A stretch of DNA of 64,000 nt from Solirubrobacteraceae bacterium (lineage in GTDB: Bacteria > Actinomycetota > Thermoleophilia > Solirubrobacterales > Solirubrobacteraceae): assembly GCA_017882455.1 (NCBI GenBank), contig JADGPL010000010.1, positions 1-64,000 on the forward strand, in the 5' to 3' direction. This document shows, piece by piece, positions 4,641-46,246 of the stretch; positions within the stretch are counted from its first letter, which is position 1, and every line of letters begins with the position of its first letter. The notes below the pieces were generated by a model. That model was not told where the DNA came from. It saw only the letters and a program-made list of their open reading frames with translations, and did not search any database. Both the position numbers and the translations under genes were made by a program.

Positions 4641-5845
4641 GCCGCGCGAGCCGCGAGCGCCCGCGGGTTGCGGTCGTGGCCGAGTTCTATCCGAGCCGCC
4701 GCGATCCCGTGCTGGGCGTGTGGGCGCACCGCCAGGCCGTGGCCGCTCGCGACGCCGGCGCGGACGTGCGGGTCCTGGTACTGCACCGCCTCGTCCCGCC
4801 GCGCTCCGCCGTGGCCGCGGGCGCCGCCGGCGCGGTGGGCGCGCTGTCCGAGCGCCTCGGCGAGCCCCGCAGGCAGACCCGCGACGGACTGGAGGTCTCC
4901 TACGTCTCCTACCTCTCTCCGCCGCGAGAGCGCTCCTACCCGACCTGGGGCGCCTGGGCGGCGCCGCCGCTCGCGCTGGCGCTGCGCCGTCTGGCGCGCT
5001 CGTTCCCCTTCGAGATCGTCCACGCCCACAACGCGGTGCCCGCCGGAGAGGCGGTGCGGCGCGCGCGCACCCGCACGCCTGTGATCGTGTCGGTGCACGG
5101 TGGCGATGTGCTCTACACGGCGGGACGCGGGCAGGCCGGCGCACAGGCGGTCAGGCGCGGACTCTCAGCCGCGCAGCTGGTGCTCGCAAACAGCGAGGGC
5201 ATCGCCGAGATGGCACGACAGCACGGGGCACGCAGAACGCGCGTGGTGCATCTCGGGGCCGACCTGCCGGCCGCCGCCGCCACCACGAGGCGCACCGGCC
5301 CGCCCTCGCTGGTGACCGTGGCGCACCTCGTTGCCCGCAAGCGCCACGCCGATGTGCTGCGCGCGCTGGCCGTGCTGCGACCGCGACATCCCACGTTGCG
5401 TTACTCGATCGTCGGCGAGGGCCCTGAGCGCACAGCCCTGGAAGGGCTGGCGGCTCGCCTGGGGGTCGCCGATCGCGTCGACTTCCACGGGCAGCTGGAT
5501 CCCGACGCGGCCGTCGAGCAGGCTCGTCGCTGCACGTTGTTCGTGATGCCCTCGACCGATGAGGCGTTCGGCGTGGCCTATATCGAGGCGATGGCTGCCG
5601 GCGTGCCCGCGATCGGATGTCGCGGCGAGCCCGGGCCGGAGGAGATCGCGGCGGCTGGCGACGGCTTCCTGCTGGTGCCGCCGGGCGACATCGAGCGCCT
5701 CACCCAGCGCATCGACGAGCTCCTCTCCGATCCGCGCCGCCTGCGCGAGGCCGGACAGCGCGCCCGCGCGACGGTGGCGGTCAACTTCACGTGGGAGCGC
5801 TGTGGCGAGGAAACGCTCGATGCGTATCGGCAGGTGCTGGGGTGA
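4637..5845 (+). CDS. Glycosyltransferase family 4 protein
   Basis: A 402-residue GT-B enzyme starting at a GTG that overlaps the stop of the preceding transferase by 4 bases. The N-terminal domain shows VAVVAEFYPSRRDPVLGVWAH and HAHNAVPAGEAVRRA, and VSVHGGDV is typical of the acceptor domain. The donor domain has VTVAHLVARKRHADVLRAL, IVGEGPERTALEGLA and MPSTDEAFGVAYIEAMAAG (E-x7-E). It ends in a GTGA overlap with the next transferase, so 2967-6942 is a tightly coupled three-gene glycosylation operon. The donor sugar is not predictable from sequence. Confidence 0.87.
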   Translation: MSRASRERPRVAVVAEFYPSRRDPVLGVWAHRQAVAARDAGADVRVLVLHRLVPPRSAVAAGAAGAVGALSERLGEPRRQTRDGLEVSYVSYLSPPRERSYPTWGAWAAPPLALALRRLARSFPFEIVHAHNAVPAGEAVRRARTRTPVIVSVHGGDVLYTAGRGQAGAQAVRRGLSAAQLVLANSEGIAEMARQHGARRTRVVHLGADLPAAAATTRRTGPPSLVTVAHLVARKRHADVLRALAVLRPRHPTLRYSIVGEGPERTALEGLAARLGVADRVDFHGQLDPDAAVEQARRCTLFVMPSTDEAFGVAYIEAMAAGVPAIGCRGEPGPEEIAAAGDGFLLVPPGDIERLTQRIDELLSDPRRLREAGQRARATVAVNFTWERCGEETLDAYRQVLG

Positions 5846-6942
5846 AGCCCGTCCTGTTCGTAACCGGGCACGCACCCGCCTACCGTGTGGGGGCGTTCGC
5901 ACGCCTGCACGAGCTCGAGGGCATCCAGCTCGCCCTGTTCGGTGGGCCCTCCAAGCATGGCGGCGCCGCCTTTGCGGGCGAGCTGCCGTTTCCCCATCGG
6001 CGAGTGCGCCCGATCGAGCTGGGGGCGCTCGCGCGGGGGTCGCGCTATCGCGCCGTGATCTGTTCCACGGGCGGTCGCCTGGCGCTGCTTTCGACCTGGG
6101 CCGGTGCCCGCCGCGGACACGCCCCGCTGATCCTGTGGGCCTCGCTGTGGGCGCATCCGCGCAGCGGCGCCCACGCCCTCAGCTACCTGCCGCTGCGCCG
6201 TCTGTATCGCTCGGCCGATGCCGTGGTCACCTACGGCCCGCACGTCAGCGCCTACGTGAGCGCACGCGGCGCGCGCAACGTGCACATCGCCCCGCAATCG
6301 GTCGACAACGACTTCTGGAGCGCGCCCGACGTGGCTCCGCCGAGGATGAGCTCATGGCCCACCGAGCCCGAGCCCGAGGTCAGGTTCCTGTTCGTGGGAC
6401 GCCCCGCTCCCGAGAAGGGGCTGGCGGTGCTGACGGCGGCCTGGCGGGGCGCGGCGCTGGCGCCGCGGAAGGCCGCGCTCGTGCTCGCAGGCGTAGACAC
6501 GCGGTCGGTCCCTCTCGACGGAGGCGGAGCGGGCGCCTCGAGGATCGTCTGCCTCGGCGCTATCGGCCGGGAGGAGCTGCGCGAGGTGTATGCGGCCAGC
6601 GATGTGCTCGTGGTGCCCTCGATCGCGACCCGCACCTTTCGCGAGCCGTGGGGGTTGGTTGTGAACGAGGCGATGAACAGGGGGCTTGCGGTGATCGCGA
6701 CAGATGCAGTGGGAGCCGCCGCCGGGGGCCTGGTGCGCGACGGGCAGAGCGGGCTGATCGTGCCCGCTGGGGATCCCCTGGCGCTCGCAGAGGCCATCAC
6801 GCGCTTGGCGCAGGACGCCTCGCTGCGCACGCGGCTGGGCGCAGCGGGGGCGAATGACGTGCGGGCGTACAGCCACGATGCGTGGGCTGAGGGCTTCTCG
6901 CGGGCGCTGTCCTCGCTGGGCCTCTCCCGGAGGCGTTGGTAG
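5842..6942 (+). CDS. Glycosyltransferase family 4 protein
   Basis: A 366-residue GT-B transferase. I chose GTG at 5842, which overlaps the previous stop by 4 bases; the open frame further upstream translates as low-complexity sequence without family resemblance. N-terminal: KPVLFVTGHAPAYRVGAFARL. Donor domain: RFLFVGRPAPEKGLAVLTAA, LGAIGREELREVYAASDVLVVPS, and EPWGLVVNEAMNRGLAVIAT, the conserved E-x7-E region of GT4. HAPAYRVGAF resembles enzymes that build O-antigen-like chains. It is the last gene of the three-transferase operon and is followed by a small secreted protein. Confidence 0.82.
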   Translation: MKPVLFVTGHAPAYRVGAFARLHELEGIQLALFGGPSKHGGAAFAGELPFPHRRVRPIELGALARGSRYRAVICSTGGRLALLSTWAGARRGHAPLILWASLWAHPRSGAHALSYLPLRRLYRSADAVVTYGPHVSAYVSARGARNVHIAPQSVDNDFWSAPDVAPPRMSSWPTEPEPEVRFLFVGRPAPEKGLAVLTAAWRGAALAPRKAALVLAGVDTRSVPLDGGGAGASRIVCLGAIGREELREVYAASDVLVVPSIATRTFREPWGLVVNEAMNRGLAVIATDAVGAAAGGLVRDGQSGLIVPAGDPLALAEAITRLAQDASLRTRLGAAGANDVRAYSHDAWAEGFSRALSSLGLSRRRW

Positions 6943-31550: not shown

Positions 31551-32051
31551 GTGCAGATCCAAGGCATAGCTCTGAGTAGGGGAACGCTCTCGACGGTGGC
31601 TGCAGCGGCCGTCGGTGCCTCGATGGCCGGATACCCGCTGTTCGGCGGCCCGCCGGCGAGCGCGGCCGGTCCGCTTGCGAGAGCAGCCCGCTCGCTCTCG
31701 CTCAACGAGAGGGCGCGGCTGCACCGGACGAGCAGCCATCAGCTGACCCTCAACGAGCAGGGCTCCGCCTCGGGCACGATCAGGGGCACCATCTACATAC
31801 ACCTTCACGTGCAGTCCCGGCACGTAACCGCCGAAGTCAACATCTACCCGTCCGGAGGCTCGCTCTCGGGCTATGCATCCGCTAGCTATCACGTGGTCGG
31901 TGGCTACGCGACGTTCGCGGGGACGATGTCGGTCACAAGGGGCACCGGCAGCTTCTCCCGTGCTCACGCGACCGGACTGCGCTTCGCCGGCTCGATCCAG
32001 CGCATCAACGACGCCACCACGGTTGAAGTCAGCGGCACGCTCTACGAGTGA
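31551..32051 (+). CDS. Secreted protein of unknown function, beta-rich
   Basis: A 166-residue protein with GTG start. The N-terminus is a signal peptide ending near GGPPASAAGP. The mature part is Gly/Ser/Thr-rich with alternating hydrophobic strands (ASGTIRGTIYIHLHV, GGSLSGYASASYHVVGGYA, FAGTMSVTRGTGSFSRAH), suggesting a small beta-barrel or jelly-roll. The ending HATGLRFAGSIQR resembles dirigent/AOC-barrel-like exported proteins, but I cannot assign a family. It overlaps the following secreted-protein gene by one base (TGATG), so the two are probably made together. Confidence 0.6.
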   Translation: MQIQGIALSRGTLSTVAAAAVGASMAGYPLFGGPPASAAGPLARAARSLSLNERARLHRTSSHQLTLNEQGSASGTIRGTIYIHLHVQSRHVTAEVNIYPSGGSLSGYASASYHVVGGYATFAGTMSVTRGTGSFSRAHATGLRFAGSIQRINDATTVEVSGTLYE

Positions 32052-32836
32052 TGGTCCGCCTGAGGGCAATCGCTGCCGTCCTCGTGATCTCCGCGACCGT
32101 GTGTGCGGCGATGTCGATGGCGCAGGCGAGCATCGCCGCTGAGCGCGTCACCCTGCAGACATCCCTCTCCCCGGACCGGCTCGGGGCGAGCACGACGATC
32201 GGCTTCGGCTTTCAGATCTCGAGCACCGATGGCGGCGTGCCGGCTCCCCTGGACGCGATCGACCTGCACCTGCCGAAGGGCATCAACTACCTCACCACCA
32301 CACTCGGGCTTGCCATCTGCCAGCCCGCTGCGCTGGCCGCCCGCGGGCTGGCCGGATGCTCCCCCAACTCCCGTCTCGGCTTCGGGAGCGCATATGTCGA
32401 GGTTCCCTTCGGACAGTCATCCGCGTATGAGATCCCCAACATCCAGGCGCTGATGGGCCCACCCCATGACGGGAATGTGGTCGTTCTGTTCTACGCAGAC
32501 GGCCGAGAACCGGTCTCTGCCCAGCTGGTCTTCACCGGCGAACTGATCGAAGGCTCCAACTCCATCGGCGGCAGCCTGACAGCGGCCGTTCCGCTGATCC
32601 CGAGCATCACCGCCGGCCCACCCGTGTCCATCGTGAGCGTCCACACGACCATCGGCCCGCAACACCTCACCTATTACAGGCACATCCACGGCAGGACGGT
32701 GAGCTTCCATCCCCTGGGGGTGTCTCTGCCGTTGCACTGTCCGCGCGGAGGCTTTCCCTTCTCCGCGACCTTCGGCTTCACCGACGGCAGTAGCGCAAGC
32801 GCCACCAGCGCCGTCCCCTGCCCGCGGTCGAGATAG
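32051..32836 (+). CDS. Secreted protein of unknown function
   Basis: A 261-residue exported protein (ATG 32051 gives a TGATG junction; GTG 32048 is in frame just before). The signal peptide is MVRLRAIAAVLVISATVCAA, with cleavage probably near AQASIAAE. The mature part has one Cys pair early (CQPAALAARGLAGC) and one late (HCPRGGFPF, VPCPRSR). It has Ig-like strand patterns such as SLSPDRLGASTTIGFGFQIS. Proteins of this type recur in Thermoleophilia-like genomes without known function. It is followed 16 bases later by the terpene-synthase-like gene. Confidence 0.6.
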   Translation: MVRLRAIAAVLVISATVCAAMSMAQASIAAERVTLQTSLSPDRLGASTTIGFGFQISSTDGGVPAPLDAIDLHLPKGINYLTTTLGLAICQPAALAARGLAGCSPNSRLGFGSAYVEVPFGQSSAYEIPNIQALMGPPHDGNVVVLFYADGREPVSAQLVFTGELIEGSNSIGGSLTAAVPLIPSITAGPPVSIVSVHTTIGPQHLTYYRHIHGRTVSFHPLGVSLPLHCPRGGFPFSATFGFTDGSSASATSAVPCPRSR

Positions 32837-32852
32837 CCCGCGGAGCGCTCAG

Positions 32853-34073
32853 ATGGACTGGAGCCGGCCTGCAGTGCGCGAGCGGATCGCGCTGGGCGGG
32901 ACATTCGCCGGGGCTGCGCTGCGCTTCTGGTTGACCGTCTTTCCCGCCGTGAACCGTGAGCTCAGTCGTCTGAAGAGGCGCGCGCAGGAGATACCCGACC
33001 CCCGAATCCGCGAGGTCGCACTGCAAGCGCTCGAGAAACGAGGCAACATCGAGGGCGCCGCTGCGTTCGCCGCATTCGCGCCGCGCCGCTTCCGCAGACA
33101 GACGATCCGCGCGCTGGTTGCCTTCCAGGCGGCGTACAACCTCACGGACACCCTCGCCGAGCAGCCGAGCGCCGACTCCGCGAGGAACGCCCGCCGCCTG
33201 CACGAGGAGCTGTGCGTGGCGCTCGATCCCCGCGCCACGCATCTCCGCTACCTGGAGCATCACGCCCAGCACGACGACGGCGGCTACCTCGCCGACCTGC
33301 TCGACACCTGCCGCGCAGCCCTTCGGGGGCTGCCCTCCTACCCGCTCATCGCTTCCGCCGCACAGACGGCCGCGGAGCGAATCGTCGCATTCCAGAGCCT
33401 CGGCCCGACTCCTTCTGTGCACGATCGAGCCACCTTCGAGCGGTGGGCGCGTGAGCTGGGGCATCCGGGGAGCGAGTTGCGCTGGTGGGAGATGGCGGCG
33501 GCGGGCGGCTCCTCGCTGGCCGTCCATGCGCTGATCCTCGCCGCGGCGGACCCGAAGCTGCAGGCGGCGGAGGTGATCGCGCTCGAGCGCGCCTACTTCC
33601 CGTGGGTGGGGGCCTTGCATTCGCTGCTCGACAGCCTCGTCGACCAGGAGGAGGACGCAGACGCCCAGCAGCTCAGCCTGGTTGGCTGCTATCCAAGCGA
33701 TCACGAGGCCGTGGTCGGCATCAGCGCCATCGCCTCAGAGGCTGTGCGCGCGACGCGGGCGCTTCCGGGCGGGCGCGGGCATCAGGTGATGCTGGCAGCC
33801 ATGGCCGGCTTCTACCTGCACACAGCTCGGTCCTCGCCGGCCGCCGGCCGCGCCGCGAGCAGGGAGGTCGCCGAGATCGCCGACGGCGTGCTCAGCGCGA
33901 TCGGCGCTCTCGCTCGCTCCGCCCTGCTGGTGTTCGCAACCCGGAGCCGGGCTGCTCGCCTGGCGGGCCGTGGCGGAGCCCACCGAGGCGGGGACGTCAC
34001 GGGCGTGGGCGCGCGCAGATCATCGGCTGAGTGGTGCGAGGGAGAGGGCGGAGTGGATGCTGGAGCTGCGTGA
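32853..34073 (+). CDS. YtpB-like (DUF2600) terpene synthase homologue
   Basis: A 406-residue, mostly helical protein of the DUF2600 family, whose Bacillus member YtpB is tetraprenyl-beta-curcumene synthase, a large-terpene (C35) cyclase. Family landmarks: FWLTVFPAVNRELSRLKRRA, the first acidic region AYNLTDTLAEQP (D-poor: usual DYLDT-type motif reads NLTDT), HDDGGYLADLLDTCR, WWEMAAAGGSSLAVHAL and a second acidic region LLDSLVDQEEDADAQQ. YtpB is shorter (about 367); the extra C-terminal ~40 residues here are basic/Gly-rich and overlap the ABC ATPase start by 17 bases, so the true end may be earlier in function. Prenyl-diphosphate substrate is inferred; no prenyltransferase gene is near. Confidence 0.78.
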   Translation: MDWSRPAVRERIALGGTFAGAALRFWLTVFPAVNRELSRLKRRAQEIPDPRIREVALQALEKRGNIEGAAAFAAFAPRRFRRQTIRALVAFQAAYNLTDTLAEQPSADSARNARRLHEELCVALDPRATHLRYLEHHAQHDDGGYLADLLDTCRAALRGLPSYPLIASAAQTAAERIVAFQSLGPTPSVHDRATFERWARELGHPGSELRWWEMAAAGGSSLAVHALILAAADPKLQAAEVIALERAYFPWVGALHSLLDSLVDQEEDADAQQLSLVGCYPSDHEAVVGISAIASEAVRATRALPGGRGHQVMLAAMAGFYLHTARSSPAAGRAASREVAEIADGVLSAIGALARSALLVFATRSRAARLAGRGGAHRGGDVTGVGARRSSAEWCEGEGGVDAGAA

Positions 34074-34737
34074 GCTGGCCAAGCACTACGCGGCGATCGG
34101 GGGCGAGACGATTCGCGCTGTGGACGGCGTATCGCTCTCGGTCGCGCCGGGCGAGATGGTGGCGCTGTACGGCCCGAGCGGATCGGGCAAGACCACGCTG
34201 CTGCTGATGATCGCGGCGCTGCTGGAGCCCACCGCCGGCTCCGTGCTCGTCGACGGTCGCGATATCTCCTCGCTGTCGAAGACGGAGGCTTCGCGCTTTC
34301 GGCTTACGGAGCTGGGGTTCGTTCGCCAGAGCTTCGACCTGCTGCCCGGCGTGAGCGCCATCGACAACGCGGTACTGAAGCTGCTGAGCACGGTCCGCTG
34401 GCGCGAGGCGCATCGTCGTATCGAGCCGCTGCTCGAACGACTGGGGCTGGGCCAGCGCCTGGAACATCGCTCGGAGACGCTCTCGATGGGCGAGCGCCAG
34501 CGTGTGATGATCGCCAGGGCGCTGTCGACCGAGCCCCGGCTGCTGCTCGCCGACGAGCCCACCGGGAGCCTCGATTCCCAGCGCAGCCGCGAAGTGCTCG
34601 AGCTGTTGCGCGAGCTCTGCCGGGAGCGCGGCGTGGCGGTGGTGCTCGTCAGCCACGACCCGCTGGCGGCCGGCTACGCCGATCGGGTGCTGGCCCTGCG
34701 GGACGGCCGCCTGCAGGACTACGAGCCCGACCGGTGA
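34057..34737 (+). CDS. ABC transporter ATP-binding protein (LolD/MacB-type)
   Basis: A 226-residue ATPase from ATG 34057, preceded by a purine-rich ribosome site (GGGAGAGGGCGGAG); the in-frame GTG-type starts further upstream lie inside the preceding gene. Walker A is YGPSGSGKTTLLLMIAAL, the Q-loop VRQSFDLL, signature LSMGERQRVMIARAL, Walker B LLLADEPTGSLD and switch His VVLVSHDP. The length is the standard ~225. It overlaps the permease gene by 4 bases (GTGA) and the upstream terpene-synthase-like gene by 17, so all three are translationally linked. The MacB/LolD type usually moves lipids, peptides or antibiotics outward. Confidence 0.9.
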   Translation: MLELRELAKHYAAIGGETIRAVDGVSLSVAPGEMVALYGPSGSGKTTLLLMIAALLEPTAGSVLVDGRDISSLSKTEASRFRLTELGFVRQSFDLLPGVSAIDNAVLKLLSTVRWREAHRRIEPLLERLGLGQRLEHRSETLSMGERQRVMIARALSTEPRLLLADEPTGSLDSQRSREVLELLRELCRERGVAVVLVSHDPLAAGYADRVLALRDGRLQDYEPDR

Positions 34738-37250
34738 GGCTCTCCAACCTGGCGCACCTCTATCGCGTGCGTCTACGCGCACGGCTCTTCCAGGAGGGCC
34801 TGGCGGTCGTCGGCATCGCCGCCGGCGTTGCGCTGCTGTTTGCGTCGCAGATCGCAAGCGACAGCCTGTCGAGCTCGGTGGCACAGCTGAACGCCGGAAT
34901 CGTCGGGAGCGCTCAGCTGCAGCTGAGCGCTCGGGACGCGCACGGCTTTCCCGACAGGTTGCTCGGGCAGGTGCGCCGCCTGCCCGGCGTGCGGCTGGCC
35001 GCGCCATTGCTCGAAGTGAACGCCAACGCGATCGGGCCGAAGGGGAGCGAGTCCGTCGAGCTGGTGGGAGCCGACTCGAGCCTGTCCGCCCTCGGCGGAG
35101 CATTGGTACGCCGCGCCGCGCTCACCCCCTTCGCAGGCCTGGGAGCCGTGGTGCTGCCAGTGCCCTTGGCCAAGACGCTCGGTGTGCGCGAAGGCCAGAC
35201 GCTCACCTTCCAGACGGGAGGCAAGGTCAGCGAAGCCGCCCTCTTCCAGCAGCTGGGTGCGCGCCAGATCGGCCCGCTGATCGACAGCCCGGTCGCACTC
35301 GCGCCGCTCGAATACGCCCAGGAACTGAGCGGTGTCGGCGCCCGCATCACGCGGGTGCTCGTGGCGCCCGAGGCGGGGCGCACGCGCGCGGTGCGCAGCG
35401 AGCTCCTGCGGCTGGCAGCCGGCCGCCTGAACGTCGAGAGCTCCGACTACGAGGTGCGGCTGTTCGCCAAGGCGGCTGCGGCCACCAACCAGTCGACGAC
35501 CCTGTTCGCGGCCATCAGCGCGCTCGTCGGGTTCCTGCTGGCCTTCAACGCCATGCTGCTCACCGTGGCCCAGCGCCGGCGACTGATCGCCGATCTTCGC
35601 CGCGAGGGCTATTCGTCACGGGCGGTCATCGCAGTGCTGCTCCTCGACGCGGCCGTGCTCGGCGTGTTCGCCTCGGCAGTCGGGCTGGCGCTCGGCGATG
35701 AGCTGTCCGTCCTGCTCTTTCGCTCCACACCCGGCTATCTCGCCTCGGCGTTCGCGGTGGGCTCCCAGCGGGTGGTGAGCTGGCAGAGCGTGAGCGTGGC
35801 AGCAGTTGGAGGGATCCTGGCGGCGCTGCTCGCCGTGCTCAGCCCCCTGCGGGACATCCTCTCCCGCGATCCGCTGGCAGCCACAGCCCCGAGCAGCGCT
35901 TCGGGCGCCCGCACGAGCGCGCTGCTGGGCGCTGGAGGGGTCGCATGCCTGGCGGTCTCGGTGGTGACCCTGCTCGCCGCGCCCCGTGCGGCAGCGCTCG
36001 GCGTGGCATGCCTACTCGCCGCGATGCTGTTGCTGCTGCCCCTCTCGTTCGCCGGGGCGCTCTGGCTCGTTCGCCGGCTCGCCCCCGGAGTGACGAGCGC
36101 GGTGCCGCATGTTGCCGTGATGGAGCTGCGCTCGGGCAGGGGACGGGCGATCGCGATCGCGGCCACGGGAGCGATCGCGATGTTCGGGAGCGTCTCGATC
36201 CAGGGCGCCCACGGCGACCTCCTGCACGGACTCGAAAACGCTGCCCACGACGAGAACGCGTTCACCGACATCTGGGTGGCCCCGGCCGGCAGCTACAACC
36301 TGCTCACGACCGCACCGTTCGCCACTCGAGGGGTCCTGCAGAAGATCGAACACCTCCAGGGCGTGCGCGCGGTGAGGATCTACCGTGGCGGCCTGCTCGA
36401 CTACGGTGAGCGCAGGGTGTGGGTGATCGCGCCGCCGCGCGAGGCCACGCCGCTCGTTCCTGCCAGCCAGCTCGTCCAGGGCACGCCCGCGACCGCGACC
36501 GGCAGGCTCCGCGAGGGCGGCTGGGCGATCCTCTCGGAAGCTCTCGCCCGCGAACACCACCTGCGAGTCGGCCAGGCGTTCACGCTTCCCTCACCCAGCC
36601 CGTCGAGCTTTCGCGTGGCCGCGCTGAGCACGAACATCGGCTGGGCGCCGGGCGCGATCGTGATCAACGCGAGCGACTATGCCCGCGCGTGGGGCAGCGA
36701 GGACGCGAGCGCGTTCAACGTCCTGCTCGCACCCGGCGTCTCACAGCGGGAGGGTGTCGAGGAGATCAGGCGAGCGCTCGGACCGAGCTCGGGGCTGGCG
36801 GTGCAGAGCGCCGAAGCGCGCGCATCTCAACAACGGGCGCTCTCGCGCCAGGGGCTCGCCCGCCTCACCCAGATCGCCACGCTGATCCTCACGGCCGCCG
36901 TGCTCGCGATGGCAGCGGCCATGGGAGCGATGGTCTGGCAGCGCAGGCCCCGCCTGGCCAAGCTCAAGCTGGAGGGTTTCTCTCCGCGCGAGCTGCGCGC
37001 CACGATCATCCTCGAGGGGACCCTGCTGCTCGGGGTCGGCTGCGCCGCCGGCGCTCTCGCCGGGCTGCTGGGACAGCAGCTGCTCGACAGCGCGCTCGCG
37101 CAGATCGTCAACTACCCCGTGGCGCGCTCCCTTGGGTTGGGCGCCGCGCTCGCGAGCCTCGCGATCGTGACAGCCGCTTCGATCGCTGTCATCACCGTTC
37201 CCGGCTGGTTCGCGGTCGAGGTGCCCGCGGGCCTGGCGCTGCAGGACTGA
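34734..37250 (+). CDS. ABC transporter permease with two FtsX domains
   Basis: An 838-residue permease with GTG start. One membrane helix lies near the N-terminus (EGLAVVGIAAGVALLFASQI), then a large extracytoplasmic region (~40-255) of MacB_PCD type. The first FtsX domain has three helices (~257-380, including LFAAISALVGFLLAFNAMLL). Two or three further helices lie at ~400-460, a second extracytoplasmic domain at ~480-710, and a second FtsX set at ~717-835 (LGVGCAAGALAGLLGQQL). The duplicated form works as a single-chain homologue of LolC+LolE. Coupled to the ATPase, and therefore probably to the terpene-synthase-like gene, it may export or place its lipid product. Its 3' end overlaps the convergent MBL gene by 59 bases. 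Confidence 0.85.
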   Translation: MRLSNLAHLYRVRLRARLFQEGLAVVGIAAGVALLFASQIASDSLSSSVAQLNAGIVGSAQLQLSARDAHGFPDRLLGQVRRLPGVRLAAPLLEVNANAIGPKGSESVELVGADSSLSALGGALVRRAALTPFAGLGAVVLPVPLAKTLGVREGQTLTFQTGGKVSEAALFQQLGARQIGPLIDSPVALAPLEYAQELSGVGARITRVLVAPEAGRTRAVRSELLRLAAGRLNVESSDYEVRLFAKAAAATNQSTTLFAAISALVGFLLAFNAMLLTVAQRRRLIADLRREGYSSRAVIAVLLLDAAVLGVFASAVGLALGDELSVLLFRSTPGYLASAFAVGSQRVVSWQSVSVAAVGGILAALLAVLSPLRDILSRDPLAATAPSSASGARTSALLGAGGVACLAVSVVTLLAAPRAAALGVACLLAAMLLLLPLSFAGALWLVRRLAPGVTSAVPHVAVMELRSGRGRAIAIAATGAIAMFGSVSIQGAHGDLLHGLENAAHDENAFTDIWVAPAGSYNLLTTAPFATRGVLQKIEHLQGVRAVRIYRGGLLDYGERRVWVIAPPREATPLVPASQLVQGTPATATGRLREGGWAILSEALAREHHLRVGQAFTLPSPSPSSFRVAALSTNIGWAPGAIVINASDYARAWGSEDASAFNVLLAPGVSQREGVEEIRRALGPSSGLAVQSAEARASQQRALSRQGLARLTQIATLILTAAVLAMAAAMGAMVWQRRPRLAKLKLEGFSPRELRATIILEGTLLLGVGCAAGALAGLLGQQLLDSALAQIVNYPVARSLGLGAALASLAIVTAASIAVITVPGWFAVEVPAGLALQD

Positions 37251-42849: not shown

Positions 42850-43401
42850 ATGATGCACACTGGATTCAAGAGGCTTTCTGCAGCCGCGGCGCTGATTGCG
42901 CCGATTGCGATGATGAGCATCTCCACTGCCCCGGCCAGCGCGGCCGAAGGCACGACATGTACCGGCAACAGCGGCTCGGCCAAGTTCTCGCCGGGGTTGA
43001 CCAGCTCGGCGAAGGTGCAGAACGTGATCGTCAAAGGCACGCTGTCGGGCTGCTCCGGCGGCGGGGTCAGCGGTGGCAGCTACATCGCACACCTGAAGAC
43101 GACCAACGCGGTGAGCTGTGCCGCACTGGCGGGCCCCGGCGAACCCGCGACCGGAACCGTCGTCATCAAGTGGTCGCCGAAGGGCCAGGGCAACTCGAAC
43201 GGGACCTTCAGCATGCCGCTCACCGGAGTCCCCGGTGTCAGTCTCGCCGGCACGCTCGAAAGCGGGCCGTTCGCAACCATGAGCCTGTCCGGGACGGTCT
43301 CTCAGACGTTCAGCGGCACCTGCGGCGCAGCCGTTGGCAAGAAGAAGGCAAAGGCCGTCAAGGACTCCACCTTCACTGGATCGGCGGTCACCATCGCGTA
43401 A
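42850..43401 (+). CDS. Secreted protein of unknown function
   Basis: A 183-residue exported protein with a clear Sec signal (FKRLSAAAALIAPIAMMSIS, cleavage near PASAAEG). The mature part is Gly/Ser/Thr-rich with four Cys that could form two bonds (TTCTGNSG, LSGCSGGG, AVSCAALA, SGTCGAAVG). It has repeated beta-type segments (VIVKGTLSGC, FSMPLTGVPGVSLAGTLES, MSLSGTVSQTF). It resembles other abundant small exported proteins of actinobacteria of unknown role. It is followed by a strong terminator hairpin. Confidence 0.65.
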   Translation: MMHTGFKRLSAAAALIAPIAMMSISTAPASAAEGTTCTGNSGSAKFSPGLTSSAKVQNVIVKGTLSGCSGGGVSGGSYIAHLKTTNAVSCAALAGPGEPATGTVVIKWSPKGQGNSNGTFSMPLTGVPGVSLAGTLESGPFATMSLSGTVSQTFSGTCGAAVGKKKAKAVKDSTFTGSAVTIA

Positions 43402-44231: not shown

Positions 44232-45191
44232 TCACGAGCGGAGCTGATCGAAGGTGCACTCCGCCGGCGCCTTGTCCTCGCGCCAGCGTCGGAGCTTGGC
44301 GCCATGGCGGATGCGCCCGGCGGAGACGTGGTCGAAGTCGATCTCGACCACCAGCTCGGGGCGCAGGCCGATCCACTCGAGATCCTTGCCGGCGCTCCAG
44401 CGGCTGGGGTCGGCCGACCCGCGCTCGCCCGACTCATACGCCGCGAGAAATCCGACGAGCCGCCTCTTCTCGGCGGCTCTCAGGCCTGAGCAGTGCCCGA
44501 CGACGCGCAGCTCGGGACCGTCGTAGAGGCCGAGGATGAGCGCACCCACGGTGTCGGGGTCCTTGCCCGGACGCCAGCCGACGAGGACCGCATCGATCGT
44601 ACGCACGCGCTTGACCTTGACCATCCCCTTGCGCTCGCCCGGACGATAGGGAGCCGAGCGCTCCTTGGCGATTGCGCCCTCGGCGCTCTGCAGCCAGCGC
44701 TCGGCCTCCTCGGAGCTCTGCACGGTCTCCATCAGCTCGACGGGCGCATCGGCGAACCGGGCGCTCCCCAGCAGTTGCTCGAGAGCTGCGCGGCGCTCGG
44801 CGAAGGGCCGCTCGAGCAGTACCTCATCCTCGAGCGCGAGCAGATCGAAGGCAACGTAGACGGCGGGAGTGTCGGTGGCGAGGCGCTCGACTCGCGAGAC
44901 GGCCGGGTGGATGCGCTGGCCCAGCGCGTCGAAGTCCTCGTGACCCTCGCCGTCGCGAACCACGATCTCGCCGTCGAGCACGTAGCGGCCATCGGGGAGG
45001 ACGAGCTCGGGGAAGTAGCGCCCGAGCGTCTTGCCGTTACGCGACTGCAGGAAGACATCGCTGCCGTCCACGAAGGCCAGGCAGCGAAACCCGTCGAGCT
45101 TGACCTCATACACATGGTCCTCGCCGGTGGGCAGCTCCTTGCGCGACAGCGCCAGCTGGGGCTTGACGGTGGGCTCGAGCGGGAGCGTCAC
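44232..45191 (-). CDS. ATP-dependent DNA ligase (LigC/LigD ligase-domain type)
   Basis: A 319-residue stand-alone ligase. Motif I is YEVKLDGFRCLAFV (adenylated Lys in KLDG), motif III YVLDGEIVVRDG and YVAFDLLALED, motif IV EGAIAKERSAPYRPG, and motif V MVKVKRVRTIDAVLVGWRPG. The OB-fold follows to residue ~315. This is the ligase domain of bacterial non-homologous end joining, separate here from the polymerase domain encoded just upstream (4-base GTGA overlap). No Ku gene or 3'-phosphoesterase domain is visible in the window. Confidence 0.9.
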   Translation of the reverse strand: MTLPLEPTVKPQLALSRKELPTGEDHVYEVKLDGFRCLAFVDGSDVFLQSRNGKTLGRYFPELVLPDGRYVLDGEIVVRDGEGHEDFDALGQRIHPAVSRVERLATDTPAVYVAFDLLALEDEVLLERPFAERRAALEQLLGSARFADAPVELMETVQSSEEAERWLQSAEGAIAKERSAPYRPGERKGMVKVKRVRTIDAVLVGWRPGKDPDTVGALILGLYDGPELRVVGHCSGLRAAEKRRLVGFLAAYESGERGSADPSRWSAGKDLEWIGLRPELVVEIDFDHVSAGRIRHGAKLRRWREDKAPAECTFDQLRS

Positions 45192-46246
45192 GACTCCTCG
45201 ACCTCCTCGAACTCGCTGCCGGCCTCGGCAGCCCCGGGCTTGCGTGCCCTGCTCGGCTGCACCCGCCTGGGCTCGTTCTTCTGCTTGCGGAAGTGTGGCG
45301 GCCAGGGCGCGTCGCCGAGGCCTTCGCGCTCGTCCCGGGCGGCGAGATCGAGCAGCCCGTCGAGGCTGCCCGGGGTGTCGTCGATGGCCGCCGAGGGGTC
45401 ACCGTGCTCGCGCAGCCGTGCGGGCACGGTGCGGAGGGTCAGCTCGGCGGGCTCGACGTCGGGCACCTCGCCCCACTCCAACGGGCAGGACACACGCGCG
45501 TCGGGCACGGCCCGGACCGAATAGGCCGAGGCCACGGTGCGGTCGCGGGCGTTCTGGTTGTAGTCGATGAACACGCCCTCGCGTTCCTCCTTCCACCAGC
45601 GGCTGGTGGCGCGGCCGGGCATCCGCCGCTCGACCTCCCGCGCGAGCGCAAGCGCGGCGCGGCGGACTTCTTCGAAGCTCTGCTCGGGCGCGATCCGCAC
45701 ATATATGTGGATGCCGCGCGAGCCCGATGTCTTTGGAAAGCCGGCCAGTCCGTGCGCCTCGAGCACCTCGCGCACGCCGAGCGCGACCTCGCGGACCTCC
45801 GAGAAGGGCACGTCGGGGCCGGGGTCCAGATCGACGCGCAGCTCATCCGGGTGGTCGAGGTCGGCGCGGCGCACCGGCCAGGGATTCCAGTCGATCACGC
45901 CGAGGTTCACCCCCCACACCAGGTGGGCGCCGTCGTTGGGCACGAGCTCGCGCGCGTGGCGCCCGCTGGGGAAGGTGACGGTCGCGGTCTGCAGCCACTC
46001 GGGCGCGCTGTCAGGGACGCGCTTCTGGAAGAACGGCTCACCCTCGACGCCGTCGACCCAGCGCTTCATCACCGTGGGGCGCTCGCGCAGGTGACGTACC
46101 ACGGCCTGCTCGCACTCGAGGTAGTAGTTGACGAGATCGAGCTTGGTGATCCCGGCCTTCGGGAAGAACAGCTTGCCGGGGCTGCTGACGCGCACCTCTC
46201 TCCCGCAGGTCTCCACGAGCACGTGCTCGGACTTCTTCGCGGCCAC
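45188..46246 (-). CDS. LigD-type polymerase domain protein (AEP superfamily)
   Basis: A 352-residue stand-alone NHEJ polymerase/primase. It shows VSSPGKLFFPKAGITKLDLV at the start, GVNLGVIDWNPWPVRRADLD, the catalytic Asp pair in LRVDLDPGPDVPF, KTSGSRGIHIYVRI and VFIDYNQNARDRTVASAYSV. After ~300 residues of the AEP fold, a Lys/Arg/Glu-rich tail (PHFRKQKNEPRRVQPSRARK) may bind DNA. It overlaps the ligase gene by 4 bases. It starts 20 bases from a divergent glycerate-kinase-like gene. Confidence 0.92.
   Translation of the reverse strand: MAAKKSEHVLVETCGREVRVSSPGKLFFPKAGITKLDLVNYYLECEQAVVRHLRERPTVMKRWVDGVEGEPFFQKRVPDSAPEWLQTATVTFPSGRHARELVPNDGAHLVWGVNLGVIDWNPWPVRRADLDHPDELRVDLDPGPDVPFSEVREVALGVREVLEAHGLAGFPKTSGSRGIHIYVRIAPEQSFEEVRRAALALAREVERRMPGRATSRWWKEEREGVFIDYNQNARDRTVASAYSVRAVPDARVSCPLEWGEVPDVEPAELTLRTVPARLREHGDPSAAIDDTPGSLDGLLDLAARDEREGLGDAPWPPHFRKQKNEPRRVQPSRARKPGAAEAGSEFEEVEES

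What the first reader, a model, noticed from the sequence alone, without database searches (positions are those of the whole stretch)
32853..37250. YtpB-type terpene synthase homologue translationally linked to a MacB/LolCE-like exporter
The DUF2600 gene overlaps the ABC ATPase start by 17 bases, and the ATPase overlaps the permease by 4. YtpB makes a C35 terpene in Bacillus; in an actinobacterium a link to a lipid-type exporter suggests a large-terpene or membrane-lipid product that is extruded or placed in the outer leaflet. The first acidic motif is altered (NLTDT rather than a DYLDT-type), so chemistry may differ. Two secreted proteins sit directly upstream in the same direction.
Basis: partly seen in the sequence, partly recalled or inferred. 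Interest (0 to 1): 0.55.

Follow-up and report, generated by a model that had tools for sequence, protein, structure and literature searches.

The report
Multi-copy large-terpene synthase and exporter modules
Some bacteria related to the soil bacterium Conexibacter carry up to ten copies of a gene module that pairs an enzyme predicted to make long terpene lipids with its own membrane pump, sometimes with a secreted barrel-shaped protein, which suggests that they build and export a family of unknown terpenes.

Summary
The DUF2600 gene (32853-34073) overlaps an ABC ATPase by 17 bases, which overlaps an FtsX/MacB-type permease by 4. The two secreted proteins upstream belong to the same run. The link is not chance: 76 of 81 DUF2600 places in 18 genomes of the family lie within 3 kb of a permease of this kind (about 1.6 expected). 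The gene is patchy (25 of 146 family genomes) but reaches 10 copies per genome; six here. The usual module is PadR regulator, degenerate ATPase, active ATPase, permease, DUF2600. The window holds a shorter variant with one ATPase and no regulator. Elsewhere the slot behind the permease holds a cis-prenyltransferase (three times, one genome) or a squalene/phytoene-synthase-like enzyme (once), so the likely cargo is an isoprenoid. One secreted protein models as a dirigent/allene-oxide-cyclase-type barrel. I read the unit as a dedicated large-isoprenoid synthase and exporter. The asparagine in the first acidic motif is shared by a small clade; the other acids remain. Product, substrate and transport direction are untested. 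Conexibacter woesei, a cultured type strain whose main menaquinone is MK-7(H4), carries four DUF2600 genes and could test it.

The parts
31551..32051 (+). c1: secreted 166-aa protein predicted as an eight-stranded dirigent/allene-oxide-cyclase-type barrel (start may be 31623)
   Evidence: Family of 16 aligned; best AlphaFold2 model pLDDT 77; VIA Z 11.7 to dirigent 6ooc and to cyclase PloI4, 10.3 to an allene oxide cyclase; Pfam only weak
32048..32836 (+). c4: secreted 262-aa protein of unknown fold, usually paired with c1
   Evidence: 19 relatives aligned with conserved cysteines; 39 of 48 c4 lie within 1 kb of a c1; no Pfam match of note; model failed, pLDDT 39
32853..34073 (+). DUF2600 / PF10776, YtpB-like (tetraprenyl-beta-curcumene synthase-like) terpene synthase homologue
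   Evidence: PF10776 E 6e-69; PDB 5yo8 E 6.3e-38; motif counts
33132..33161 (+). acidic motif 1, AYNLTDTLAE (first Asp replaced by Asn, second Asp D99 kept)
   Evidence: Alignment with 5yo8; N in 12 and D in 61 of 74 aligned sequences, one gap
33630..33656 (+). acidic motif 2, DSLVDQEED, acids intact
   Evidence: the three Asp columns counted are Asp in 72, 74 and 74 of 74
34057..34737 (+). ABC ATPase with canonical Walker A, signature, Walker B and H-loop
   Evidence: ABC_tran E 4e-35; motifs GPSGSGKT, LSMGE, DEP, SHD
34734..37250 (+). 838-aa permease with two FtsX and two MacB_PCD stretches
   Evidence: five close homologues in own genome, each beside a DUF2600 gene

Best explanation
The five genes 31551-37250 form one operon for making and exporting a large isoprenoid. 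The DUF2600 enzyme ionises a long prenyl diphosphate, probably from the menaquinone (C35) pool, and releases an uncharged terpene or terpenol. The ABC ATPase and FtsX permease move this lipid out of the inner membrane to the outer leaflet or cell surface. Two secreted proteins receive it there; the dirigent-like barrel may bind or cyclise it outside the cell. Shown by sequence: gene order, overlaps, families, conserved acids, conserved pairing, and other isoprenoid synthases in the same slot elsewhere. Inferred: that the genes are co-transcribed, the substrate, the product, the export direction and the role of the secreted proteins.
For: 76 of 81 DUF2600 places within 3 kb of the permease family, about 1.6 expected. 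DUF2600 and permease trees agree, r 0.74 in 52 pairs, against a within-genome shuffle mean of 0.27 and maximum of 0.54. Of 92 permeases over 1.9 kb, 71 have DUF2600 within 3 kb, three have only a cis-prenyltransferase and one only an SQS/PSY enzyme. All ten cis-prenyltransferases that I count as extra to the housekeeping copy in 30 genomes lie within 3 kb of this permease or of DUF2600. Metal-binding acids are conserved in 74 aligned sequences. c1 has a cyclase-type barrel fold and, at E below 1e-20, occurs in 16 of 18 DUF2600 genomes against 1 of 12 without. The main menaquinone of C. woesei is MK-7(H4) (PMC3035278, passages read) and its genome carries four DUF2600 genes. In B. subtilis the YtpB product lies on the spore surface under a glycan layer (PMC11708026, passages read).
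Against: No chemistry is shown. 17 of 92 permeases have no isoprenoid synthase of the three kinds within 3 kb, so the pump may also carry other cargo. c1 or c4 lies near only 18 of 66 DUF2600 calls, and 12 of 43 c1 genes lie near neither DUF2600 nor the permease (hand count). The slot swaps come from two genomes only (G234, G243). The first Asp of motif 1 is Asn in the window. No trans-prenyl synthase gene is added with DUF2600. PadR-regulated pumps are often drug exporters (recalled).
Confidence: 0.6

Rival explanations
1. The module is a drug or envelope-stress resistance unit. The PadR-controlled FtsX pump protects polyprenyl carriers, as BceAB does, and DUF2600 or the cis-prenyltransferase adjusts the pool of polyprenyl diphosphates; nothing is secreted as a product.
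For: PadR-like regulators near 45 of 66 DUF2600 calls; 19 of 22 tested hit Pfam PadR. In B. subtilis, deletion of ytpB with limited menA raises heptaprenyl diphosphate, which sensitises to bacitracin (PMC7038271, passages read).
Against: The same paper found no effect of heptaprenyl diphosphate on BceAB activity. Up to ten divergent copies, with secreted barrels and P450 neighbours in some, look like specialised metabolism. The window's own module has no PadR gene beside it. I did not search for histidine kinases.
Confidence: 0.22
2. The pump is a general lipoprotein or peptide exporter and DUF2600 is a passenger that makes a terpene which stays inside the membrane.
For: The nearest named ATPase model is LolD (202.2 bits, cut-off 307.75); 17 of 92 permeases lack an isoprenoid synthase nearby.
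Against: One-to-one pairing in the own genome, co-divergence of the two proteins, and other isoprenoid synthases in the same slot.
Confidence: 0.13
3. DUF2600 in the window clade has lost catalysis and acts as a lipid-binding partner of the pump.
For: Asn replaces the first Asp of motif 1 in an eight-member clade (support 0.949).
Against: The second Asp of motif 1 and the acids of motif 2 are kept, and most relatives have the complete pair.
Confidence: 0.05

Closest known systems
YtpB / BalTS tetraprenyl-beta-curcumene synthase (PF10776; PDB 5yo8, 6loo, 6lop)
   Same: Sequence homology over residues 25-324 (E 6.3e-38), motif 2 and the second Asp of motif 1
   Different: First Asp of motif 1 is Asn here; many paralogous copies; an ABC pump and secreted proteins are linked, and in most relatives a PadR regulator; no such partner is named in the passages on YtpB that I read
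MacB / LolCDE / FtsX-type ABC transporters
   Same: FtsX and MacB_PCD domains, LolD-like ATPase
   Different: Separate ATPase and a permease with two FtsX stretches; LolD, LolCE and MacB cut-offs not reached; most relatives add a second, degenerate ATPase
Bacterial dirigent-like proteins (PMC9344732) and AOC-barrel cyclases (AbyU, PloI4)
   Same: c1 fold and, by eye, the GGTG-(Y/F) motif reported for bacterial dirigent-like proteins; that paper reports one beside a terpene synthase, an octaprenyl diphosphate synthase and a P450 in Streptomyces formicae (passages and one section read)
   Different: c1 reaches neither the Dirigent nor the AOC_like Pfam family (best E about 0.03) and is tied to DUF2600 and an ABC pump
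BceAB-type resistance transporters
   Same: ATPase plus FtsX permease, with a possible connection to polyprenyl lipids
   Different: A terpene synthase homologue in the run, and a PadR regulator in most relatives

Membership tests
DUF2600 / YtpB-type terpene synthase (PF10776) | Match over most of the profile above the curated cut-off | tested here: met
   232.9 bits against 25, profile positions 1-311 of 328
DUF2600 / YtpB-type terpene synthase (PF10776) | Acidic motif 2, DY(F,L,W)IDxxED | tested here: met
   DSLVDQEED keeps the acids; Tyr is Ser and Ile is Val
DUF2600 / YtpB-type terpene synthase (PF10776) | Acidic motif 1, DYLDNLxD | tested here: inconclusive
   NLTDTLAE: first Asp is Asn, second kept, last is Glu; 12 of 74 aligned sequences have the Asn
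DUF2600 / YtpB-type terpene synthase (PF10776) | Cyclises a long prenyl diphosphate | not testable with these tools
   Needs an enzyme assay
FtsX/MacB-type ABC transporter superfamily | ABC ATPase plus permease with FtsX and MacB_PCD domains | tested here: met
LolCDE lipoprotein-releasing transporter | Curated family cut-offs of LolD and LolCE | tested here: not met
   LolD 202.2 of 307.75 bits; LolCE 39.9 of 362.45 bits
MacB | Fused ATPase-permease above the MacB cut-off | tested here: not met
   Separate genes; the ATPase scores 174 of 966 bits
Dirigent / AOC-barrel proteins (c1) | Eight-stranded barrel fold | tested here: met
   Model with eight strands; VIA Z 11.7 to 6ooc over 116 residues at 2.8 A
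Dirigent / AOC-barrel proteins (c1) | Sequence match to Pfam Dirigent or AOC_like | tested here: inconclusive
   Best E 0.029 and 0.031, in 2 and 1 of 16 members
BceAB-type resistance module | Adjacent BceRS-type two-component system (recalled) | not tested
   Neighbour genes were listed but not searched for kinases

The most novel reading that the evidence does not exclude
This is a modular secretion platform for large isoprenoids. One exporter type, with an active and a degenerate ATPase in most modules, is duplicated up to about ten times per genome and fitted with exchangeable isoprenoid synthases (DUF2600, cis-prenyltransferase, SQS/PSY). A secreted dirigent-like barrel finishes or folds the exported terpene outside the cell. 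Each copy, most of them under their own PadR regulator, would make a different surface terpene.
Probability: 0.3. Interest if true: 0.86.

Novelty: new variant of a known kind. Interest (0 to 1): 0.69.

Why it matters
A review counts only 27 C35 terpenes (PMC7839719, passages read), and no exporter for them is named in the passages I read. If the reading is right, a bacterial family that includes a cultured type strain holds dozens of unexplored large-terpene pathways, each with its own pump, and shows one way in which very hydrophobic lipids reach the outside of a bacterial cell. It also makes the question testable: C. woesei has four DUF2600 genes and six permeases of this family over 1.9 kb (one of the six is reported in two pieces), and its main menaquinone, MK-7(H4), implies a C35 prenyl diphosphate pool (inference). 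Three unrelated isoprenoid synthases in one gene slot give a sequence-based argument for the cargo of an otherwise anonymous transporter family.

Tried and rejected
Considered and rejected: that the DUF2600-ABC adjacency is chance; that an added trans-prenyl synthase feeds the module (about two PF00348 genes per genome with or without DUF2600); that the permease is LolCE or MacB proper; that the window's motif 1 is a sequencing oddity (it is shared by a clade).

Led nowhere: a scan of viral contigs gave no relative of the DUF2600 protein. The structure model of c4 failed (pLDDT 39). Foldseek alone gave no PDB match of E 0.001 or better for c1; the fold statement rests on the VIA second look at Foldseek's candidates, where outer-membrane barrels also reach Z 10. 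Four of the five AlphaFold2 models of c1 were less confident than the one kept (62.8, 37.9, 37.1 and 34.3 against 77.4). The permease has one weak PDB match (5xu1, E 0.003). Nearest-neighbour agreement of the DUF2600 and permease trees was 26 of 52, less striking than the distance correlation. My pattern for the catalytic D-G-N motif matched only one of the three cis-prenyltransferases of G234 (L138) in the stretches that I translated; L139 and L140 did not match.

Choices and rows dropped: the whole-genome counts use 18 of the 25 family genomes that have DUF2600; places that one search reported in two pieces were merged, giving 81. In one search ten of 102 permease places were under 1.9 kb and left out of the slot count; the permease list was cut by hand at E about 1e-23 and split hits were merged. 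c1 was cut at E about 1e-20 (43 of 46 hits kept) and c4 at about 1e-40 (48 places kept). For the tree comparison DUF2600 calls under 300 aa and permeases under 780 aa were left out; 52 pairs remained. The 74 aligned DUF2600 sequences include two Bacillus-like ones (L007, L008) and one place twice (L037, L084). Of the five DUF2600 places without a permease within 3 kb, three begin within 6 bases of a contig start (G231 C151 and C51, G233 C117); G227 C100 is not at an end and truly lacks one in the stretch read; G232 C80 was not looked at. As housekeeping cis-prenyltransferase I took the best-scoring copy, except in G231, where all three copies are beside DUF2600. Gene calls outside the window come from my own caller; starts are approximate and it missed some DUF2600 genes (for example in L106/L128).
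Full report
What is there. The window holds five genes in one direction with short gaps or overlaps: c1 (31551-32051), c4 (32048-32836), DUF2600 (32853-34073), an ABC ATPase (34057-34737) and a permease (34734-37250). The genes before them look like a sulfur-assimilation run and a biotin-dependent carboxylase, and a gene on the other strand follows (named by eye). Pfam gives DUF2600 at 232.9 bits, ABC_tran, FtsX and MacB_PCD; the two small proteins have no Pfam match.

The DUF2600 protein. The only PDB match is 5yo8, the Bacillus tetraprenyl-beta-curcumene synthase (E 6.3e-38). A review describes two aspartate-rich motifs for this enzyme, DYLDNLxD and DY(F,L,W)IDxxED (PMC7839719, passages read). 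In the window they read NLTDTLAE and DSLVDQEED. In 74 aligned sequences the first position is D in 61 and N in 12, with one gap; the second Asp is kept in 73; the three Asp columns counted in motif 2 are Asp in 72, 74 and 74. The Asn sequences include an eight-member clade with the window (support 0.949) and four others, so the change is inherited, and the other metal-binding acids remain.

How common it is. The own genome has six DUF2600 genes. Of 146 genomes of the same family 25 have the gene, in 4 of 25 genera, with up to 10 copies. In a class-wide sample 4 of 149 genomes have it, two of them with Bacillus-like genes without a pump beside them, and in a phylum-wide sample 1 of 396, the own genome. 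Of 18 named loci, 16 are MAGs called Solirubrobacterales or Solirubrobacteraceae, one 'Actinomycetes' and one Limnochordaceae. One genome, G173, has exactly the published length of Conexibacter woesei, 6,359,369 bases, and carries four DUF2600 genes.

The module. I called genes in 75 neighbourhoods (the window and 74 fetched) and found 66 DUF2600 calls. A permease of the same family lies next to DUF2600 in 55, 53 of them on the same strand and all of those upstream; in 65 it lies within eight genes; PadR-like regulators lie near 45; c1 or c4 near 18. The common order is PadR, ATPase 1, ATPase 2, permease, DUF2600. On whole genomes, 76 of 81 DUF2600 places in 18 genomes (of the 25 that have the gene) have a permease within 3 kb, with about 1.6 expected by chance. 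In the own genome the pairing is one to one, six and six. The two trees agree (r 0.74 in 52 pairs; 5,000 within-genome shuffles gave mean 0.27, maximum 0.54), so synthase and pump have diverged together.

A degenerate ATPase partner. In 52 modules with two ATPases, the first ATPases form one clade (52 of 52, support 1.0) and none keeps all seven catalytic residues checked: the H-loop His is present in 1, the Q-loop Gln in 4, the Walker B Glu in 28 of 52. The second ATPase keeps all seven in 50 of 52. The window and its relatives L096, L098, L092 and L110 have a single ATPase and no PadR gene beside it (L098 and L110 are cut by contig ends); the window's ATPase has intact motifs. L096 shows the same 17-base overlap.

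What fills the slot. The strongest clue to the cargo comes from permeases without DUF2600. In genome G234, in which no DUF2600 was found, three permease matches are followed 140-171 bases on by a cis-prenyltransferase match (PF01255). In L156 (genome G243) a squalene/phytoene-synthase-like protein (PF00494, E 2.2e-50) overlaps the permease by 4 bases and is followed by c1 and c4. Among 92 permeases over 1.9 kb, 71 have DUF2600 within 3 kb, three only a cis-prenyltransferase, one only SQS/PSY and 17 none of these. Conversely, 23 of 30 genomes have one cis-prenyltransferase, two have none found and five have more. All ten extra copies (seven in DUF2600 genomes, three in G234) lie within 3 kb of DUF2600 or of the permease; I took the best-scoring copy of each genome as housekeeping, except in G231, where all three are beside DUF2600. 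In the own genome one module reads PadR, ATPase 1, ATPase 2, permease, DUF2600, cis-prenyltransferase (4-base overlap), c1, c4 (L022). Three unrelated isoprenoid synthases in one slot behind one pump family argue that the pump carries an isoprenoid. The swaps come from two genomes, and the catalytic motif of the cis-prenyltransferase was seen in only one of the three G234 copies.

The secreted proteins. c1 and c4 are paired: 39 of 43 c1 lie within 1 kb of a c4. 22 of 43 c1 lie within 10 kb of DUF2600 (about 1.5 expected), nine more lie within 10 kb of the permease and 12 near neither (hand count). At E below 1e-20, c1 occurs in 16 of 18 DUF2600 genomes and in 1 of 12 without, that one being G234; one more (G011) has a weak hit at 3e-14. 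The c1 model is an eight-stranded barrel (pLDDT 77, with the first 41 residues unordered). It aligns with an uncharacterised Shewanella protein (Z 12.8), the dirigent pterocarpan synthase 6ooc (11.7), the cyclase PloI4 (11.7), Diels-Alderases (mostly 10-11) and allene oxide cyclases (about 10); outer-membrane barrels reach Z 10 in the same list, so the fold alone does not fix a function. By eye the family shares the GGTG-(Y/F) motif that a survey reports for bacterial dirigent-like proteins, and that survey found one beside a terpene synthase, an octaprenyl diphosphate synthase and a P450 (PMC9344732, passages and one section). Genes of one P450 cluster also sit beside DUF2600 in L060, L101 and L102 (Pfam tested on L060). 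The fold of c4 is unknown.

Substrate supply. Genomes with DUF2600 have about two trans-polyprenyl synthases, as do those without, so the enzyme probably draws on a shared pool. The main menaquinone of C. woesei is MK-7(H4) (PMC3035278, passages read), which implies heptaprenyl diphosphate, the YtpB substrate. Modules with their own cis-prenyltransferase may use a different chain.

Mechanism. Best reading: DUF2600 makes a large terpene at the inner face of the membrane; the ABC pump extrudes it; c1 and c4 meet it outside. Shown are gene order, families, conserved residues and co-divergence; inferred are substrate, product, direction and the outside step. The B. subtilis parallel is that tetraprenyl curcumene lies on the spore surface, covered by a glycan layer (PMC11708026, passages read). 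The main rival is a resistance unit around polyprenyl carriers, for which the PadR regulators and the ytpB-bacitracin link speak, although heptaprenyl diphosphate did not inhibit BceAB (PMC7038271, passages read).

Literature. Searches for DUF2600; YtpB with terpene; tetraprenyl-beta-curcumene synthase; large terpene synthase or heptaprenyl; Solirubrobacter with terpene and ABC transporter; class IB, type IB, sesquarterpene or large-terpene; and Conexibacter woesei with terpene synthase showed, in the titles and abstract starts listed (30 of 216 papers, 25 of 47, all in the others), none on a DUF2600 exporter module. The library holds open-licence papers only, and I read passages of seven papers. 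A C35 terpenoid is known from another actinobacterium, Kibdelosporangium; the term 'gene cluster' does not occur in that paper's text (PMC10107436).

Verdict. I file it as a new variant of a known kind, because each main protein belongs to a known superfamily while I found no description of the combination, the exchangeable synthase slot or the degenerate ATPase partner.

Noticed in passing
L138, L139, L140 (genome G234): A congener in which no DUF2600 was found carries a cis-prenyltransferase in the DUF2600 slot behind the same permease in three modules.
   Followed up: yes
L156 (G243:C199) 5671-6588: A squalene/phytoene-synthase-like gene overlaps the permease by 4 bases and is followed by c1 and c4.
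   Followed up: yes
ATPase 1 of two-ATPase modules, e.g. L018, L019, L022: The first ATPase has lost the H-loop His in 51 and the Q-loop Gln in 48 of 52 modules, yet forms one conserved clade: an asymmetric ATPase pair in an FtsX-type transporter.
   Followed up: partly
L060, L101, L102: A cytochrome P450 and a small redoxin-like protein (by eye) sit downstream of DUF2600.
   Followed up: partly
L007 (G020), L008 (G064): Bacillus-like DUF2600 genes without an ABC pump beside them in two other families of the class; recent transfer or bin contamination possible.
   Followed up: no
G000:C27:139265-140970: Two adjacent SQS/PSY genes in the own genome, HpnC/HpnD-like by arrangement (recalled), suggest squalene or hopanoid synthesis.
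   Followed up: no
window 44232-46246: Two adjacent minus-strand genes look like a split LigD ligase and polymerase (by eye).
   Followed up: no
window 42850-43401: A small protein with a signal-like start and no Pfam or NCBIfam match.
   Followed up: no
L146 (G245:C14): Two permeases of the family in tandem with one pair of ATPases.
   Followed up: no
L028, L067, L091, L114: Large secreted proteins (cluster c12; those seen are about 680-1130 aa) whose repeats resemble c4 by eye.
   Followed up: no
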